Positions 1,023 through 19,554 of a stretch of DNA of 45,120 bases are shown here, in pieces (the first letter of the stretch is position 1; each line of letters starts with the position of its first letter). The notes under the pieces were generated by a model that was not told the DNA's origin, did not search any database, and saw only the letters and a list, made by a program, of their open reading frames with translations. Source of the DNA: Vicinamibacteria bacterium (GTDB lineage Bacteria; Acidobacteriota; Vicinamibacteria; Fen-336); assembly GCA_016934575.1 (NCBI GenBank), contig JAFGSN010000098.1, forward strand, positions 1 through 45,120, read 5' to 3'. The position numbers and the translations under genes are program-made.

Positions 1023-1028
1023 GGAGGG
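1023..1028 (+). promoter_or_regulatory. Shine-Dalgarno site fixing the start of the cyclase/cold-shock fusion
   Basis: GGAGGG lies 4-7 nt before two consecutive ATG codons (1033 and 1036). The upstream in-frame TTG at 1021 overlaps this ribosome binding site, so it cannot be the real start. Confidence 0.7.
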
Positions 1029-1035
1029 AGCGATG

Positions 1036-2235
1036 ATGAATTTAGCCCACAAACTGACTTCACCTGAATCGAAGGTGCACCGTGTCGTTCTGACGCTTGT
1101 CTTGAAGGATCTGGCGTCCACGAAGCAAAAGGATTCGGAAGCCTCGTGGATTGCTCTGATCGGTCGTTTTCTTGACGTCGTTCTCGAATCCACGGATTGC
1201 GGGGCGCGAGAATCCGTGCGATGTCTTCCGTCGGGCGCGCGCGTGGTCTTCGGCGAGGACGAGGCTGTCGCCGCGGTCAACGCGGCGATTCATGTCCAGG
1301 AAGCTCTCTCCGAGGCGCCAGAAGACGACCGGCCTGCATTGCCCGTCTCCGCCGGAATCGCCTCGGGCGAGATCGCTCGCGTTGATCTGCCGGGCGCCGA
1401 CGCCCAGGATCTCGGGGCTGTCGTGGATCGCTCGCTTGGCATGGCCGAAGCGGCGGCGCGCCGCGCCGTCGTCGTCGATCGTCCGACGCTGGCTCTTCTT
1501 CGCAACGGCGGCTTCTCCTCCCGCGCCGGTGAGAACCAGACTCCTCGTCGCACGGCGGATGAATATGAGGGTCCCGCCAGTCAAGTCAAGCTTCCGCTCT
1601 GCGTCGAGGAAGTCGAATACCGCGAAATCTTCTGGGACACACAGCTCCACGGCCTTGACTCTCCCACGCCTCCGGCAATCGAGATTCAAGAAGCCGCGGC
1701 TGCTCCCCCTCCGAACGGCGGCGCTCCGGAGCGTCTCATCGGCACGGTTCGACGTTGGTCCCGCGAACGCGGCCAGGGATTGATTCTTTCGAATCAAGGC
1801 GAATCCTTCTACGTCGATCGCCGTTACATCGTCGGCGGAGCGCCTCTGGAACCGGGTTCAAGGACATTCTTCGTTCCTCGCCCCTCCTTGATTCCCGGCA
1901 AAAACCGCGTCGCTGCCTGCGTCGTGGCGCTGGGCTCGACTCTCACTGGCAAGGTGGTCCGTGTCGGCAGTCGCGGCTTCGGTTTTCTCGAGGTCAATGA
2001 TTCCTCCGGGATCAATCAACGTCTCTTCATGTTGCTGGGGGACAGTCATGAGCGATTCGCCGTCTCCGATTCCGTCACGTTCGTCGTCGCCGAGAACGAT
2101 CGCGGCCCCATCGCGCGCAATCCCCGACGCGGCGATCCTGAGCATCGACAAAGAAGCGCGTCAAGAACCCGATCGCGACGACCGTCGCCTTCGCCTCAAA
2201 CTCCGAGCTCGACGGAAGCCCAGGAAGCATCCTAA
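1036..2235 (+). CDS. degenerate class III nucleotidyl-cyclase domain fused to two cold-shock-like domains
   Basis: The product has 399 residues. Residues ~15-165 have the layout of a class III adenylate/guanylate cyclase: a first metal-Asp position kept in VLKDLAST (D25), then a strand ending VVFGEDEAVAAVNAAI, then LPVSAGIASGE. Where active enzymes have Gly-Asp for the second metal, this protein reads Pro-Ser (P65-S66), and the usual NxxxR catalytic pair is not visible, so it is probably inactive. After a Pro/Ala linker come two nucleic-acid-binding-like OB folds. The first starts at G236 (IGTVRRWSRERGQGLI). The second carries an RNP1-like RGFGFLEV at ~313-320. The last ~38 residues are Arg/Ser/Pro-rich and look disordered. 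A role as an RNA-binding regulator that senses a nucleotide is inference. Confidence 0.65.
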   Translation: MNLAHKLTSPESKVHRVVLTLVLKDLASTKQKDSEASWIALIGRFLDVVLESTDCGARESVRCLPSGARVVFGEDEAVAAVNAAIHVQEALSEAPEDDRPALPVSAGIASGEIARVDLPGADAQDLGAVVDRSLGMAEAAARRAVVVDRPTLALLRNGGFSSRAGENQTPRRTADEYEGPASQVKLPLCVEEVEYREIFWDTQLHGLDSPTPPAIEIQEAAAAPPPNGGAPERLIGTVRRWSRERGQGLILSNQGESFYVDRRYIVGGAPLEPGSRTFFVPRPSLIPGKNRVAACVVALGSTLTGKVVRVGSRGFGFLEVNDSSGINQRLFMLLGDSHERFAVSDSVTFVVAENDRGPIARNPRRGDPEHRQRSASRTRSRRPSPSPQTPSSTEAQEAS

Positions 2236-2240
2236 ACGCC

Positions 2241-2531
2241 ATGCCTGAAGTGCTTGAAGTAATCTGTCCGTGTTGCGGATCAGCTCTGAAGATCGATCCT
2301 GAAACGGGAGCGATCGTATGGGCGGATCAGAAAAAGGCGCCTCCCAAGGACTTCGACGACCTCGTCCAGCGCGTCCATAGCCAGAAAAGCGCTCTCGACG
2401 AGAAATTCGAGCGTTCAGTGAACCAGACGAAGCACCAACGCGACATACTGGAGAAAAAATTCGAGGAGGCGCGCAAGCGAGCCGCGGCCGATCCCAACGT
2501 ACGTCCGCCGAATCCTTTCGACAACGAGTGA
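2241..2531 (+). CDS. small zinc-ribbon / coiled-coil protein
   Basis: A 96-residue protein. It opens with one CPCCGS knuckle (residues 9-14), then a strand pair, then a strongly charged helical segment (about 40-85) rich in Lys/Glu with heptad spacing, and ends in PPNPFDNE. A single Cys pair suggests zinc binding only on dimerisation, or use as a half-ribbon. It begins 5 nt after the cyclase/cold-shock gene and is surely in the same transcript, so an accessory role to that RNA-binding protein is possible. No named family is assigned. Confidence 0.65.
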   Translation: MPEVLEVICPCCGSALKIDPETGAIVWADQKKAPPKDFDDLVQRVHSQKSALDEKFERSVNQTKHQRDILEKKFEEARKRAAADPNVRPPNPFDNE

Positions 2532-3186: not shown

Positions 3187-5670
3187 TCACGATGCGGCTT
3201 GCCGGTCTTCCGGTATTCGCATCGCGTAGAAAGAGCGGTACACGAACACGAGCGCGACGAGCAGGAACGCCGCTCCCAGAGCCATCTTGAGATCCGTGTT
3301 CCGCATCGTGACCGCGATCTCCACGGCGAGCAGGCCGAACAGCGTCGTGAACTTGATGACCGGATTCAGGGCAACGGACGACGTGTCCTTGAACGGATCA
3401 CCGACCGTGTCGCCGACGATGGTCGCTTCGTGTAGCGGCGTGTTTTTAGCTCGCAGGTCGACTTCGACGATCTTCTTCGCGTTATCCCACGCGCCCCCCG
3501 CGTTGGCCATGAACAACGCCTGGAACAATCCGAAAAAGGCGATCGCGATCAGGTAGCCGATGAAAAGATACGGATCGAAGAAGGGGAGCGCCAGCGCCAG
3601 GCTGAAGATGACCACGAAGATGTTGAGCATGCCTTTCTGCGCGTATAGCGTGCAGATGCGCACGACTTCCTTCGAGTCTTGAATCGATGCGTGCTCGGCG
3701 TCGAGCTTGATCTTGTCTTTGATATACACGACCGCGCGATAGGCGCCGGTGACGACCGCCTGTGTCGAGGCGCCAGTGAACCAGTAAATGACCGCTCCGC
3801 CGATGATCAATCCGAAGATCACTTCCGGCCGAACGATACTGAGCATCGCGATGACGTCGAATTGCCCTGAAACCGCCTTCGCGGCGACTTCGCCCACATG
3901 TTGGAGCAGCAGGATGATCCCAAAGATCATTGTCGTGGCGCCGACAACCGCGGTTCCGATGAGCACCGGCTTGGCCGTCGCCTTGAATGTGTTGCCCGCG
4001 CCGTCGTTCTTTTCCAGGAAATCCTTGGCGTTTTCGAAATCGGGCGTGAAGCCGAATTTGTCCTTGATCTCTTGCTTGACGTCCGGCAACGACTCGATTC
4101 TGGACAGCTCGTACACGGACTGCGCGTTGTCCGATACCGGACCGAAGCAGTCGACGGCGATCGTCACCGGACCCATGCCGAGAAAGCCGAATGCGACCAA
4201 TCCGAACGCGAAAACCGAGGATGCGACGGGAAATTCCGGCGGCATGAGGCTCACTAACGCCGTGTTCTGCGAAAGCAAGAACGATACGAACATCAAAACC
4301 ACCATTAGCATTCCCAGCCAAAATGCCGCGAAATTCCCGGCCACGAATCCCGAGAGGATGTCGAGCGAGGCGCCGCCTTGTCGCGCCGAAATCACGACTT
4401 CCTTGACGTGGCGCGATTTCGTCGACGTGAAGATCTTTGTGAATTCCGGTATCAAGGCGCCGGCCGCCGTTCCACAACTGATGATCACGGCCAGAACCCA
4501 CCAGAGGTCGCCGTACGTCGCGGCCGGCAAGAGTACCGAGCTCGCGCCGAATGTCACTAGTATCGATACGATCGAGGTGATCCAAACCAAGTGCGTGAGC
4601 GGTTTCTCGGCGTCGAAGTCCGCACCGGCGCCACGATAGATCCGCTTGGTGATCGCGTCATTGAGGAAAAACGAGAACAACGAGGTCAGGATCATCAAGA
4701 TTCGCATCACGAAGATCCATATGATGAGCTGACCGCAGACAATCGGATTGCTCGCCAGCGCCAGCGCCAGGAACGCGATCAAAGCGACGCCTGTCACGCC
4801 GTAGGTCTCGAAGCCGTCCGCCGTCGGTCCGACGCTGTCACCGGCGTTGTCGCCCGTGCAGTCGGCGATGACGCCGGGATTCTTCGGATCATCCTCGGGA
4901 AGATGGAACACGATCTTCATCAGGTCGGATCCGATGTCGGCGATCTTCGTGAAAATCCCGCCGGCGATTCGCAGCGCCGATGCTCCGAGCGATTCGCCGA
5001 TGGCGAAGCCTATAAAGCACGGACCCACAAGCTCTTTCGGGAGGAAAGACAGAATGCAGATCATAAAGAACAGCTCGACGCAAACAAGCAGCAATCCGAC
5101 GCTCATGCCCGACTTCATGGGAATGAGCATGGGCGCCAGCGGTGATCCCTTCAACGCGGAAAATGCGGAGCGCGAGTTGGCTTTTGTATTGATTCGTATG
5201 CCGAACCACGCGACGCCGTATGATCCGAGTATGCCCAGAACGGAGCTGCCGAGGATCCACAGGATCTGATAGACGGGCTTGTGTTGCAAAGCGCCGAAAT
5301 AGTACAGGATACAAGCTCCGATCAGGATCCAGAGCAACCCGAGAAACTTGCCTTGCTGAATCAAATAAGTCTTGCAGGTCTCCCAGATGATCTCCGATAC
5401 GTTGCCCATCGAAGCGTGCACCGGCAGTCTTTTGATCTGGCCGTACTGGACCAGACCGAACACCAGGCCGATCAAACACACCAGCAAGCCGCCGTACATG
5501 AGTGTGAGACCGGCGACCGGCATCCCGAAAATCTCAAAAGAGACATGGCTCAAATCGGGCAGGTTGATGTCCGCCTCGCCGGCCAAGGCGCTCGACCCGA
5601 GTCCGAAGAAAGCCGAAAACGCCGTCAATCCGCTCCAAAACGCGAGTGATCTCGTTACTTTTCTGGTCAT
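3187..5670 (-). CDS. hppA: membrane-bound ion-translocating pyrophosphatase (K+-independent type)
   Basis: An 827-residue, ~16-helix membrane protein that hydrolyses cytosolic PPi to pump H+ and/or Na+. The catalytic loop EDDPKNPGVIADCTGDNAGD, followed by SVGPTADGFETYG, lies at about residues 260-295. The K+-selectivity motif reads GNTFKA with Lys at ~563, the residue that replaces K+ in potassium-independent enzymes; the usual Thr/Gly three positions later is Ala. The variant CTGDNAGDSVGPTADGFETYGVTG differs from the common NVGDNVGDCAGMAAD form and is seen in a divergent branch of the family. An apparent cleavable signal peptide (residues 1-30, ending SSALA) precedes the first core helix. 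The transported ion cannot be decided by eye. It is a single-gene transcript with a long leader. Confidence 0.95.
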   Translation of the reverse strand: MTRKVTRSLAFWSGLTAFSAFFGLGSSALAGEADINLPDLSHVSFEIFGMPVAGLTLMYGGLLVCLIGLVFGLVQYGQIKRLPVHASMGNVSEIIWETCKTYLIQQGKFLGLLWILIGACILYYFGALQHKPVYQILWILGSSVLGILGSYGVAWFGIRINTKANSRSAFSALKGSPLAPMLIPMKSGMSVGLLLVCVELFFMICILSFLPKELVGPCFIGFAIGESLGASALRIAGGIFTKIADIGSDLMKIVFHLPEDDPKNPGVIADCTGDNAGDSVGPTADGFETYGVTGVALIAFLALALASNPIVCGQLIIWIFVMRILMILTSLFSFFLNDAITKRIYRGAGADFDAEKPLTHLVWITSIVSILVTFGASSVLLPAATYGDLWWVLAVIISCGTAAGALIPEFTKIFTSTKSRHVKEVVISARQGGASLDILSGFVAGNFAAFWLGMLMVVLMFVSFLLSQNTALVSLMPPEFPVASSVFAFGLVAFGFLGMGPVTIAVDCFGPVSDNAQSVYELSRIESLPDVKQEIKDKFGFTPDFENAKDFLEKNDGAGNTFKATAKPVLIGTAVVGATTMIFGIILLLQHVGEVAAKAVSGQFDVIAMLSIVRPEVIFGLIIGGAVIYWFTGASTQAVVTGAYRAVVYIKDKIKLDAEHASIQDSKEVVRICTLYAQKGMLNIFVVIFSLALALPFFDPYLFIGYLIAIAFFGLFQALFMANAGGAWDNAKKIVEVDLRAKNTPLHEATIVGDTVGDPFKDTSSVALNPVIKFTTLFGLLAVEIAVTMRNTDLKMALGAAFLLVALVFVYRSFYAMRIPEDRQAAS

Positions 5671-10068: not shown

Positions 10069-10659
10069 TCATACGCAGAGCATGCTCGCGCCGTAGCGCC
10101 GCCGAGCGTTCCTGGTCAGCGACGCGGCGATCAAGATGATCGTAAGCGTGAGCACATAAACATATAGCGCATAGCTCGCGCCGCTCCGTCCGAGCGTCAG
10201 CGCCGTCTCGAAGAACGCGCGAAGAAGCGCGGATAACGCGCCGATCAGCGTCAGCGACGGTCCGAGTACGCGCGATCCCTTGACGAGCATGACCAGTCCG
10301 TCACTCATCGTCGATACGATTGCGGGCAACATCCATTCGCTCCATCCGACGACGACGCAGGCCGAGGCAGCAACGACCATCGTGACCGTGACCCAAGAAG
10401 CCTTCCTTCGCGCCTCCTCCCCTTGTGCTTGACGCGCGCGATTCACCCGCGCCATGACGTTGGCCGTGAAAGAAGCTCCGGATTCTACCGAGGGCAGGCG
10501 CGCAAGAAGGTTGACAGCCCGAAGAAGCCGCTCGAACTCCACCCGGCAGTCTCCGCATACGAGCCGATGCCGCTCGAACGCCTCCCGCTCCTTCGCCGAA
10601 AGCTCACCGTCGATCGCGAATCGACTCCACCGTCTGAACCGTGAGCAACGAACCCGCAT
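10069..10659 (-). CDS. zinc-finger anti-sigma factor, membrane-anchored
   Basis: About 196 residues. The N-terminal ~60 residues form a ZAS/zf-HC2 anti-sigma domain: Cys5, then H..., then HRLVCGDC (HxxxCxxC). A membrane helix follows at about 85-110 and further hydrophobic segments occupy the C-terminal half. It should hold the ECF sigma factor encoded just upstream at the membrane until an envelope signal releases it. The ATG at 10659 has GGAGGG 8 nt upstream. The earlier GTG at 10674 overlaps the sigma stop codon and the SD site. Confidence 0.85.
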   Translation of the reverse strand: MRVRCSRFRRWSRFAIDGELSAKEREAFERHRLVCGDCRVEFERLLRAVNLLARLPSVESGASFTANVMARVNRARQAQGEEARRKASWVTVTMVVAASACVVVGWSEWMLPAIVSTMSDGLVMLVKGSRVLGPSLTLIGALSALLRAFFETALTLGRSGASYALYVYVLTLTIILIAASLTRNARRRYGASMLCV

Positions 10660-10673
10660 CTTTCCGCCCTCCA

Positions 10674-11258
10674 CTAGAGATTTACGAAATCGCGAAGCTC
10701 TTGTTGCAGCTTCTCGCGACCGCGATGGATCCGAGCCTTGACTGTCCCCATGGGCAATCCCAGGGCTTCGGCGATTTCCTCATAGGACAACTCCTCGACA
10801 TGCCGCATCACCAGCACGCTCCGATACCGGGGCGGCACGGCGGCAAGCGCTTTCTCGACGGCTTCCAATAACTCGCCACGCAGCACCTCTTCCTCTGGCG
10901 TCGGCCGCGCATCGGGCAACTGCACGGTCGGCTGATCGTCATCCTCCGTCCTCGTCAAAGTCTGCATCTGAGGTCTTCTCGTCCGCAGCCAGTCGAGGCA
11001 ACGGTTATGGGCGATTCTGAACAAATAGGACACCACGGCTTTCCGTGTGTCGATTCGCGGAAGAGCCTGATAAAACCTGACAAAGACCTCCTGCGCCAGG
11101 TCCTCGGCAAGGCTTTCGTGTCGGACCATCCGATGACAATATGTCAAGACACGCCGGCGATAACGGTCGACGATCGTCTCGAAGGCAGTTTCGTTCCCCG
11201 TCTTGGACTGCTCGATCAGGGTAATGTCCAATTCGGCGTTGTCGTACTGCTCGTTCAT
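10674..11258 (-). CDS. ECF-family RNA polymerase sigma factor (RpoE-like)
   Basis: 194 residues from the ATG at 11258 (a GTG at 11279 is possible). Region 2 spans about 20-90 (core-binding YRRRVLTYCHRMV, then AEDLAQEVFVRFYQALPRI, then SYLFRIAHNRCLDWLRTR). After an acidic linker, region 4 spans about 135-190 (PPRYRSVLVMRHVEELSYEE, then IAEALGLPMGTVKARIHRG). Regions 1 and 3 are absent, as in all ECF factors. It probably controls its own operon with the anti-sigma factor and the polymer-forming protein. I could not find a convincing ECF -35/-10 pair upstream. Confidence 0.92.
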   Translation of the reverse strand: MNEQYDNAELDITLIEQSKTGNETAFETIVDRYRRRVLTYCHRMVRHESLAEDLAQEVFVRFYQALPRIDTRKAVVSYLFRIAHNRCLDWLRTRRPQMQTLTRTEDDDQPTVQLPDARPTPEEEVLRGELLEAVEKALAAVPPRYRSVLVMRHVEELSYEEIAEALGLPMGTVKARIHRGREKLQQELRDFVNL

Positions 11259-11461
11259 CGAACTTTGAATGTACAACACCCTGCGGGTCCTTGACGCCCA
11301 TTAATACGTGTTCAGCCGGCTATTTGTTGCGCTCGATCCCGGTCCGTACTGAAAGGCACGGGTGTCACGACGCCCACCGACCGTCGTAACGCTTGATTTT
11401 TCCGTTAGTTACGTCGGCTTGGCCAAACCGATGACGTTGCCGCGCAGCAAAGACGCAGGTT

Positions 11462-17363: not shown

Positions 17364-18182
17364 TCAGCTACGACATGATTCCCGCCCGCGTCGGGCGACC
17401 GATCTCTCGGCGATCGTCTCTCGTTTTCCCAGGACGGCCACTCGCTTGCCGCTTTGTCGTTGCTCGCGGAAATCGTGTCCTTCCATCGGGACAACCAGGC
17501 ACATCTCCATCAGTCGGGAACGCAATCTGTGTCCGATACGTTCCACGAGATATTCCTGTCGTTTCATCGAATCGTCCAGCAAGGCTTCCCTGGGCCGAGC
17601 GTCGGAATAGTTGGTTGTAATTAGCGTCACGCGGTTGTTCATGTATCGGCTATTGAGGACGAAGAACAGCGTGTCGTGCATCCAGTCCGTGATCTTCCAT
17701 GCGCCCAGATCGTCGAGCAGCAGCACATCCGTATCGATGACCGGCTGAAGAACCTGCAACTCCGTCATGCGCACGTCGTGATTGTAACTGTTCCTGATCT
17801 CGCGAAGCAGCTCGTTGAAATCCCAGTACTGACCGCGCGCCCTGTTTCCGGTGACGAGTTCACGAAGCACGCTCACCGCGAGATGCGTCTTGCCGACGCC
17901 GGGGCCGCCGGTGAAGATCAGGCCCAGCCCTTCGTCGGGCTCCGCGAAAGGATACCCTTGGCAAAAGCTCATCGCCCGCTCGAGAGCCGCCCGCAACGAC
18001 GGATTGCCCGGCTCGAACGTCCCCAGATTGCAGTGCGCGTAACGCGGCGGAATTCGGCATGCAATCGAAAGATCGTCTTCATTATCCCCGCGTGCACTAC
18101 GACAAATACAGGGTCGCGCGTACTCACGATCCTCGCTGATCACGATCTCGAACCCGGTGCCGTCGCATCGTTCACAGATCAA
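17364..18182 (-). CDS. DnaC/IstB-like AAA+ ATPase with N-terminal zinc motif
   Basis: 272 residues. The N-terminus has two Cys pairs (CERC at 3-6, CIC about 25-27) that could bind zinc. The AAA+ core has Walker A GGPGVGKTH (about 91-99), Walker B LLLDDLG, and a sensor-type TLITTN. This is the DnaC helicase-loader / IstB family. No IstA transposase or terminal repeats are nearby, so a replication or recombination accessory ATPase is more likely than a transposon part. Its TTG start overlaps the stop of the upstream sigma-factor gene (TTGA), so it is translated from the same mRNA by coupling. The C-terminal ~25 residues are Arg/Ser-rich and unlike the family. Confidence 0.8.
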   Translation of the reverse strand: MICERCDGTGFEIVISEDREYARPCICRSARGDNEDDLSIACRIPPRYAHCNLGTFEPGNPSLRAALERAMSFCQGYPFAEPDEGLGLIFTGGPGVGKTHLAVSVLRELVTGNRARGQYWDFNELLREIRNSYNHDVRMTELQVLQPVIDTDVLLLDDLGAWKITDWMHDTLFFVLNSRYMNNRVTLITTNYSDARPREALLDDSMKRQEYLVERIGHRLRSRLMEMCLVVPMEGHDFREQRQSGKRVAVLGKRETIAERSVARRGRESCRS

Positions 18183-19075
18183 TTGAGATACCCCCGCAAT
18201 CCGTCAGCCGCCTTGAGGCGGCGCAACCTCTCTTTGGCGCGGCTCTCGATCTGCCGGACGCGCTCGCGCGTGAGCTGCAATCGATCGCCGATCTCTTGGA
18301 GCGTACGCGGCTCATCGCCATCCAGACCAAACCGCAAGCTGATGACCTCACGCTCTCGGGCGTCGAGACCGTCGAGCAACGCGCGGACCTGGTGCGCAAG
18401 CGATTCACGGATCAGCTCCTCTTCGACCGTGGGGATCGACTCCTGCTCAAGAGTGTCTTCCAGCATGAAGCTGCCGTCATCCGCAATGGCCGTCGATAGC
18501 GAAATCTCAGATCCCGTAATGGCACGCAACGTCGCAATCTCCCGCCGACTGAGCTTGGTCGCTTCTGCGATCTCGTCCTCCGTCGGTAAATGATCCAGCT
18601 CCGCCGCCAGACGATCCTCGGCGAAGCGGAGTCTGTGCATCTTTCCGGTGACCTTGTGCGGAAGTCGAAACGGACGTGCCTGCAGCGACAGCGCGTTCAG
18701 GATCGCTTGCCGTATCCACCAGACGGCATACGAGATGAAGCGTACGTTGCGCTCCGGGTCGAATCTCCGCGCGGCTTCGATCAAACCGAGATTCCCTTCA
18801 TGAATCAAATCGACGAACGCGAGCCCATACCCGCGATAGCGTTTGGCGTACGAGACGACGAAACGAAGATTGGTTTCGACCAGCCGATTCAGCGCGTCGC
18901 GATTCCCCGCTCTGATGCTTCGGCCGACTTCCTTCTCCTGCTCCGGCGTCAGTTGCGGGAAACGGGATATGGCATGCAGATATGCCTGAAGACTGTCGCC
19001 GGACGCATCTGACTCCGTTCGCGAGGCACCGAGCCCTCGTTTCTGATCGGCGCGATTCTTGTTGCGGGAAGGCAT
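18179..19075 (-). CDS. group-2 sigma-70 factor (RpoD/RpoS-like, no region 1.1)
   Basis: 298 residues from the ATG at 19075, placed just downstream of a minus-strand TATAAT at 19108-19103; a longer frame would start upstream of that promoter. Region 1.2 begins DSLQAYLHAIS. Region 2 reads NLRFVVSYAKRYRG, then LIHEGNLGLIEAARRFD, with the promoter-melting RFISYAVWWIRQAI. Region 3 and region 4 (REREVISLRFGLDG, then LQLTRERVRQIE) follow. The absence of region 1.1 and the short length mark an alternative, not housekeeping, sigma. Directly following dnaJ-hspR suggests a stress role; that is inference. Confidence 0.9.
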   Translation of the reverse strand: MPSRNKNRADQKRGLGASRTESDASGDSLQAYLHAISRFPQLTPEQEKEVGRSIRAGNRDALNRLVETNLRFVVSYAKRYRGYGLAFVDLIHEGNLGLIEAARRFDPERNVRFISYAVWWIRQAILNALSLQARPFRLPHKVTGKMHRLRFAEDRLAAELDHLPTEDEIAEATKLSRREIATLRAITGSEISLSTAIADDGSFMLEDTLEQESIPTVEEELIRESLAHQVRALLDGLDAREREVISLRFGLDGDEPRTLQEIGDRLQLTRERVRQIESRAKERLRRLKAADGLRGYLN

Positions 19076-19102
19076 AGTCGGCGCGTCAAGCAAAGACGAT
19101 CG

Positions 19103-19108
19103 ATTATA
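19103..19108 (-). promoter_or_regulatory. -10 box for the sigma-factor/ATPase operon
   Basis: Perfect TATAAT on the minus strand, 28 nt before the chosen sigma-factor ATG. No good -35 box at 16-18 nt, so the promoter may need an activator or alternative holoenzyme. Confidence 0.45.
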
Positions 19109-19137
19109 ATGCATCCGCTCTCGAACACGTGGAGCAT

Positions 19138-19554
19138 TCACAAAGACTCGGAAGGCTTCGGCACGATTTGTCGCGGCGGCAGTTTTACGAGCGCTTGCTC
19201 GAAGCGTTCCTTCCAACCATCGCGGTTCGCGCGCGCCAGCTCTTCCTGAACATAAGCGACGAACTCAGTGATCTCGGCCTGCATGCGCTCCATCTTGGCG
19301 CGCATGTTGAGGACGACTTCGACGCCGGCCAAGTTCACTCCCAGATCACGCGTCAGGTTGAGTATCGTCTCGAGCTGCCACAAGTCTTCTTCCGAGTATA
19401 GGCGCGTATTTCCTTCCGTACGCGAAGGCTTGAGCAAACCCTCGCGCTCGTATAGACGCAGCGTCTGTGGATGTATGCCAAAACGCTTGGCCACGACGCT
19501 GATCATGTAGTAACGACCTTCGCCAGTCTTCGTGCGACTCGCTCGACGCGCCAT
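19138..19554 (-). CDS. hspR: heat-shock repressor HspR (MerR family)
   Basis: 138 residues. An N-terminal MerR-type winged helix: VVAKRFGIHPQTLRLYEREG recognition region, then LKPSRTEGNTRLYSEEDL, and LTRDLGVNLAGVEVVLNMR leading to the dimerising helix. HspR normally represses dnaK, dnaJ, clpB and lon operons until unfolded protein titrates DnaK. The gene starts 3 nt after the dnaJ stop with GGGAG upstream, the classic dnaJ-hspR order, so it is probably autoregulated. I found no canonical HAIR operator upstream of dnaJ or dnaK. Confidence 0.92.
   Translation of the reverse strand: MARRASRTKTGEGRYYMISVVAKRFGIHPQTLRLYEREGLLKPSRTEGNTRLYSEEDLWQLETILNLTRDLGVNLAGVEVVLNMRAKMERMQAEITEFVAYVQEELARANRDGWKERFEQALVKLPPRQIVPKPSESL

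What the first reader, a model, noticed from the sequence alone, without database searches (positions are those of the whole stretch)
1036..2235. Pseudo-nucleotidyl-cyclase fused to tandem cold-shock-like domains
The class III cyclase half keeps the first metal Asp (D25) but has Pro-Ser in place of the second metal Gly-Asp and no visible NxxxR pair. It is joined to two OB/cold-shock-like folds with RNP1-like motifs. That suggests an RNA-binding protein with a dead cyclase used as a ligand or dimer module, plus a zinc-ribbon partner 5 bp downstream. I do not know a described function for this architecture.
Basis: partly seen in the sequence, partly recalled or inferred. Interest (0 to 1): 0.6.

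Follow-up and report, generated by a model that had tools for sequence, protein, structure and literature searches.

The report
Dead Pycsar-like cyclase with cold-shock domains
This gene encodes a signalling enzyme that has lost its catalytic residues but kept two cold-shock-type nucleic-acid-binding domains; its few relatives, on actinobacterial plasmids and chromosomes, keep the active site and in two Streptomyces sit beside an anti-phage effector gene, so the window protein looks like a disabled offshoot of a little-known phage-defence sensor.

Summary
Observation confirmed and strengthened, with one correction. The 399-aa ORF (1036-2235, +) is a class III cyclase-like domain (about aa 14-202) followed by two cold-shock/OB domains (about aa 232-364). 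Full-length homologues (27-30% identity) occur in two Streptomyces, on Mycolicibacterium and Mycobacteroides plasmids, and in another actinobacterial genome. All five aligned keep both metal Asp and the catalytic Arg. The window protein has Val22, Pro65-Ser66 and Gly135 there, so both metals and the Arg are lost; D25 aligns with a Gly, not with the first metal Asp. It keeps 22 of 44 cyclase positions invariant in the intact proteins, but 11 of 13 OB positions. Relaxation is confined to the cyclase half. In both Streptomyces the next gene is PycTM, the Pycsar membrane effector, and the cyclase halves match PADLOC PycC models (E to 6e-16). The same tandem-OB module is fused to a TIR-like domain in another genome of the window's phylum. 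Best reading: a horizontally acquired, enzymatically dead member of a Pycsar-type cyclase + tandem-CSD family, now at most a nucleic-acid-binding or dimerising protein. The downstream 'zinc-ribbon partner' is an unrelated core-lineage gene with one CxxC. No confident structure model was obtained.

The parts
1023..1027 (+). Ribosome-binding site GGAGG, 5 nt before ATG 1033 and 8 nt before ATG 1036
   Evidence: read directly in the sequence
1036..2235 (+). Whole ORF, 399 aa: dead class III cyclase domain + tandem cold-shock/OB domains + R/S/P-rich tail (ATG 1033 also possible)
   Evidence: full-length homologues
1075..1641 (+). Cyclase-like domain, aa 14-202
   Evidence: alignment A2; family profile hits Ma1120 E 5e-12
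1099..1101 (+). V22, at the column of the first metal Asp (Asp in all five relatives)
1228..1233 (+). P65-S66 in place of Gly-Asp (second metal Asp)
1426..1440 (+). aa 131-135: D131 kept, G135 in place of the transition-state Arg (D-x-A-x-R in relatives)
1729..1938 (+). First cold-shock/OB domain, aa 232-301 (W241, RGQGLI)
   Evidence: profile match to 2k5n E 4e-7; two CSD stretches in L040 and L041
1939..2127 (+). Second cold-shock/OB domain, aa 302-364 (RNP1-like RGFGFLEV)
   Evidence: phmmer to CspB E 0.005; profile match E about 1e-6
2128..2232 (+). Arg/Ser/Pro-rich C-terminal tail, about 20 aa longer than in relatives
   Evidence: alignment A2
2241..2531 (+). Downstream gene, 96 aa, one CxxC + coiled coil; core gene of the lineage, probably only a passenger of the operon

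Best explanation
The gene is a horizontally acquired, catalytically dead member of a rare family whose intact members are Pycsar-type class III nucleotide cyclases carrying a C-terminal pair of cold-shock/OB domains. In intact members I infer that the OB pair senses single-stranded RNA or DNA made during phage infection and switches on the cyclase, whose cyclic nucleotide opens a membrane effector (PycTM). In the window protein the signal-making step is lost: both metal ligands and the Arg are gone, so it can serve as neither half of a class III active site, even in a heterodimer. What is left under constraint is the OB pair, so its remaining activity, if any, is nucleic-acid binding by a protein whose cyclase fold probably dimerises it. 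Shown: domain make-up, family, loss of catalytic residues, uneven constraint, PycTM adjacency in two Streptomyces. Inferred: horizontal origin, trigger, dimerisation, binding.
For: Full-length homology to intact cyclase + tandem-OB proteins. PADLOC PycC hits for the intact cyclases, E 6e-16 to 1e-5. PycTM over cut-off directly downstream in L043 and L039. Catalytic columns V22, P65-S66, G135. Cyclase positions kept 22 of 44, OB 11 of 13; identity to L055 is 28% cyclase and 38% OB for the window protein against 48% and 29% for L043. Absent from 13 same-family genomes and 100 relatives; tandem-OB module in 2 of 396 genomes of the phylum. Neighbouring genes not syntenic in relatives.
Against: No PycTM over cut-off in the genome (one sub-threshold match) and no defence gene found beside it. 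Only two of the intact relatives' loci have PycTM, so the Pycsar link of the whole family is not general. No orthologue of the window protein itself is known, so purifying selection on it was not measured. The T statistic is clear against L055, L043 and L039 but its interval touches or crosses zero in three of four comparisons with the mycobacterial proteins. No confident structure model.
Confidence: 0.6

Rival explanations
1. It is a decaying remnant of an acquired defence gene with no present function; the OB half merely has not yet drifted as far.
For: Dead active site, no effector nearby or in the genome over cut-off, no orthologue in relatives, contig end 1 kb upstream hides part of the context.
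Against: The ORF is intact over 399 codons with a good ribosome-binding site, and the OB half keeps 11 of 13 family-invariant positions while the cyclase half keeps 22 of 44, which uniform decay would not give.
Confidence: 0.25
2. It is still a working part of a defence system: a pseudo-cyclase sensor that binds phage nucleic acid and controls, through dimerisation, another protein (an intact cyclase or the downstream 96-aa protein).
For: Family context is Pycsar-like; the same tandem-OB module is fused to a TIR-like domain in G192, so the module appears in more than one effector setting; 5-bp spacing to the downstream gene allows co-expression.
Against: No effector identified in the window; the downstream gene is an old lineage gene without this neighbour elsewhere.
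Confidence: 0.1
3. It is a host regulatory RNA chaperone unrelated to defence, with the cyclase fold as a small-molecule receptor.
For: Cold-shock domains are general RNA chaperones; pseudo-active sites can bind nucleotides.
Against: Patchy distribution and plasmid-borne relatives fit a mobile gene rather than a housekeeping regulator.
Confidence: 0.05

Closest known systems
Pycsar (PycC cyclase + PycTM or PycTIR effector)
   Same: Intact relatives match PycC models and two are followed by PycTM
   Different: Window protein has no catalytic residues, no match to PycC models by itself and no effector; the PADLOC PycC models match only the cyclase part, and the C-terminal tandem OB pair is extra
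Class III adenylate/guanylate cyclases (PF00211; Ma1120, 4wp8)
   Same: Homologous domain by family profile
   Different: Both metal Asp and the transition-state Arg are replaced
Cold-shock proteins (PF00313; CspB, 2k5n)
   Same: Two tandem CSD-like units, second with RNP1-like RGFGF
   Different: Below the Pfam cut-off in the window protein; embedded in a cyclase fusion, not a stand-alone Csp
CSD-bearing conflict systems (CoCoNuTs, PMC11090510; CSD_V of PADLOC)
   Same: CSD/OB domains joined to defence proteins as presumed RNA sensors; OB halves of L040, L041 match CSD_V
   Different: CoCoNuTs are GTPase/nuclease systems, not cyclases

Membership tests
Class III nucleotidyl cyclase (active) | Two metal-binding Asp | tested here: not met
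   V22 and S66 at the two columns; Asp in all five relatives
Class III nucleotidyl cyclase (active) | Transition-state Arg | tested here: not met
   G135
Class III nucleotidyl cyclase (fold family) | Homology of the domain | tested here: met
   Family profile E 5e-12 to Ma1120; BLASTP E 2e-45 and 3e-47 to intact relatives
Pycsar | PycC-type cyclase | tested here: not met
   Window protein: no PADLOC match even at E 1; intact relatives match
Pycsar | Adjacent PycTM or PycTIR effector | tested here: not met
   Only a sub-threshold PycTM match elsewhere in the genome; neighbours have no such domain. Met for L039 and L043
Pycsar | cUMP or cCMP synthesis and phage defence | not testable with these tools
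   needs biochemistry
Cold-shock domain proteins | CSD homology of both units | tested here: met
   Met at family-profile level; the window protein alone is below the Pfam cut-off
Cold-shock domain proteins | Five-stranded OB fold | tested here: inconclusive
   Models at pLDDT about 34-35 are not usable

The most novel reading that the evidence does not exclude
Cyclases with a C-terminal tandem cold-shock module form an undescribed Pycsar variant in which the OB pair is the phage nucleic-acid sensor; the same sensor module is reused on a TIR-like effector, and the window protein is a natural pseudo-enzyme version that works by binding alone.
Probability: 0.2. Interest if true: 0.75.

Novelty: new variant of a known kind. 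Interest (0 to 1): 0.45.

Why it matters
What activates Pycsar cyclases is, to my knowledge, not settled. A cyclase carrying its own tandem nucleic-acid-binding module next to PycTM would make that question directly testable, and the dead version offers a natural separation of binding from catalysis.

Tried and rejected
Two structure predictions (single sequence; window + L043) gave pLDDT 35.0 and 33.9, so no fold search was run. Viral contigs: three scans, no relative; phage records: no match. Genome-contig scan returned one locus only, its two peptide patterns being restrictive. Whole genome not available as a file. Rejected: the 2-TM ORF 733-975 as PycTM (no Pfam or PADLOC match); the 96-aa downstream gene as a dedicated partner; C130 of the genome as a PycTM (below cut-off). 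Literature searches for this fusion found nothing, in an open-access library that lacks the original Pycsar paper.

Full report
The finding. Window 1036-2235 (+) is an open frame of 399 aa with GGAGG at 1023-1027. It holds up when relatives are brought in.

Relatives. tblastn of plasmid records found four full-length homologues: Streptomyces sp. NBC_01445, Mycolicibacterium crocinum and two Mycobacteroides abscessus plasmids. A genome scan added Streptomyces fuscichromogenes, and an actinobacterial survey added G322 and a second sight of the M. crocinum plasmid (G318). The window protein aligns with them along nearly its whole length: 30-27% identity in alignment A2, BLASTP E 2e-45 to L043 and 3e-47 to L055. 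A profile of the six hits solved class III cyclases (E 5e-12) and, separately over each OB unit, solved cold-shock proteins (E 4e-7 and about 1e-6).

The active site. All five aligned relatives keep the first metal Asp, the Gly-Asp of the second and the Arg of D-x-A-x-R. The window protein has V22, P65-S66 and G135. A different gapping around this short stretch could put D25 at the Asp, as BLASTP against L055 uses other gaps here, but the second Asp and the Arg are lost in any case. Class III sites need the metal Asp from one subunit and the Arg from the other (established knowledge of the family), so this protein can serve as neither half.

Uneven constraint. Among intact members the cyclase half is the more conserved (L043 to L055: 48% against 29% for the OB pair). 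In the window protein the order is reversed (28% against 38%). Of 44 cyclase columns invariant in the five intact proteins it keeps 22; of 13 OB columns, 11. The bootstrap difference excludes zero against L055, L043 and L039 and for one of four comparisons with the mycobacterial proteins. This is what loss of catalysis with continued use of the OB pair predicts, though no close orthologue exists to measure selection directly.

Context of the intact family. In both Streptomyces the next gene down is PycTM (PF18967, E 1.2e-12 and 1.4e-9, over cut-off), and the cyclase halves match PADLOC PycC models. Pycsar cyclases make cUMP or cCMP that activate PycTM or PycTIR (PMC11224242). No PycTM was found for G322 or the mycobacterial plasmids. 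In G192, of the window's phylum, the same tandem-OB module follows a TIR-like domain (PADLOC TIR effector model, E 7e-9). Cold-shock OB folds are taken as RNA sensors in other conflict systems (PMC11090510).

Distribution and origin. No match to the whole protein among 100 relatives, 13 of the same family; the OB module occurs in 2 of 396 genomes of the phylum and 3 of 396 drawn around G280. Genes on either side are not syntenic in relatives. This patchiness, and plasmid-borne relatives, suggest horizontal acquisition (inference).

The 'partner'. The 96-aa gene 5 bp downstream is found in 79 of 100 relatives, has one conserved CxxC and a coiled coil, and has no cyclase beside it elsewhere. It is most likely a bystander that shares the transcript.

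Verdict. A catalytically dead, horizontally acquired member of a rare Pycsar-like cyclase + tandem cold-shock family. What was not shown: any binding, any structure, and whether the window gene is still used.

Noticed in passing
L045:427-1368 (-) and 1498-2370 (-), genome G192: A TIR/NDT-like protein fused to the tandem OB module is followed by a second protein with a related TIR/NDT-like domain; looks like a two-gene defence locus.
   Followed up: partly
L041, L042 (Mycobacteroides plasmids): The intact cyclase + CSD gene lies among ImmA/IrrE, Abi-family and recombinase genes; one neighbour matches PADLOC PD-T4-5.
   Followed up: partly
window 3187-5670 (-): 827-aa protein annotated by eye as a membrane pyrophosphatase (not run through Pfam here); same-family relatives have a 26%-identical version 3-5 kb downstream of the 96-aa gene.
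   Followed up: partly
window 10069-11279 (-): ECF sigma factor with adjacent zf-HC2 protein, a probable sigma/anti-sigma pair.
   Followed up: no
window 17364-18182 (-): IstB/IS21-like ATP-binding protein next to a sigma-70 gene (18179-19216).
   Followed up: no
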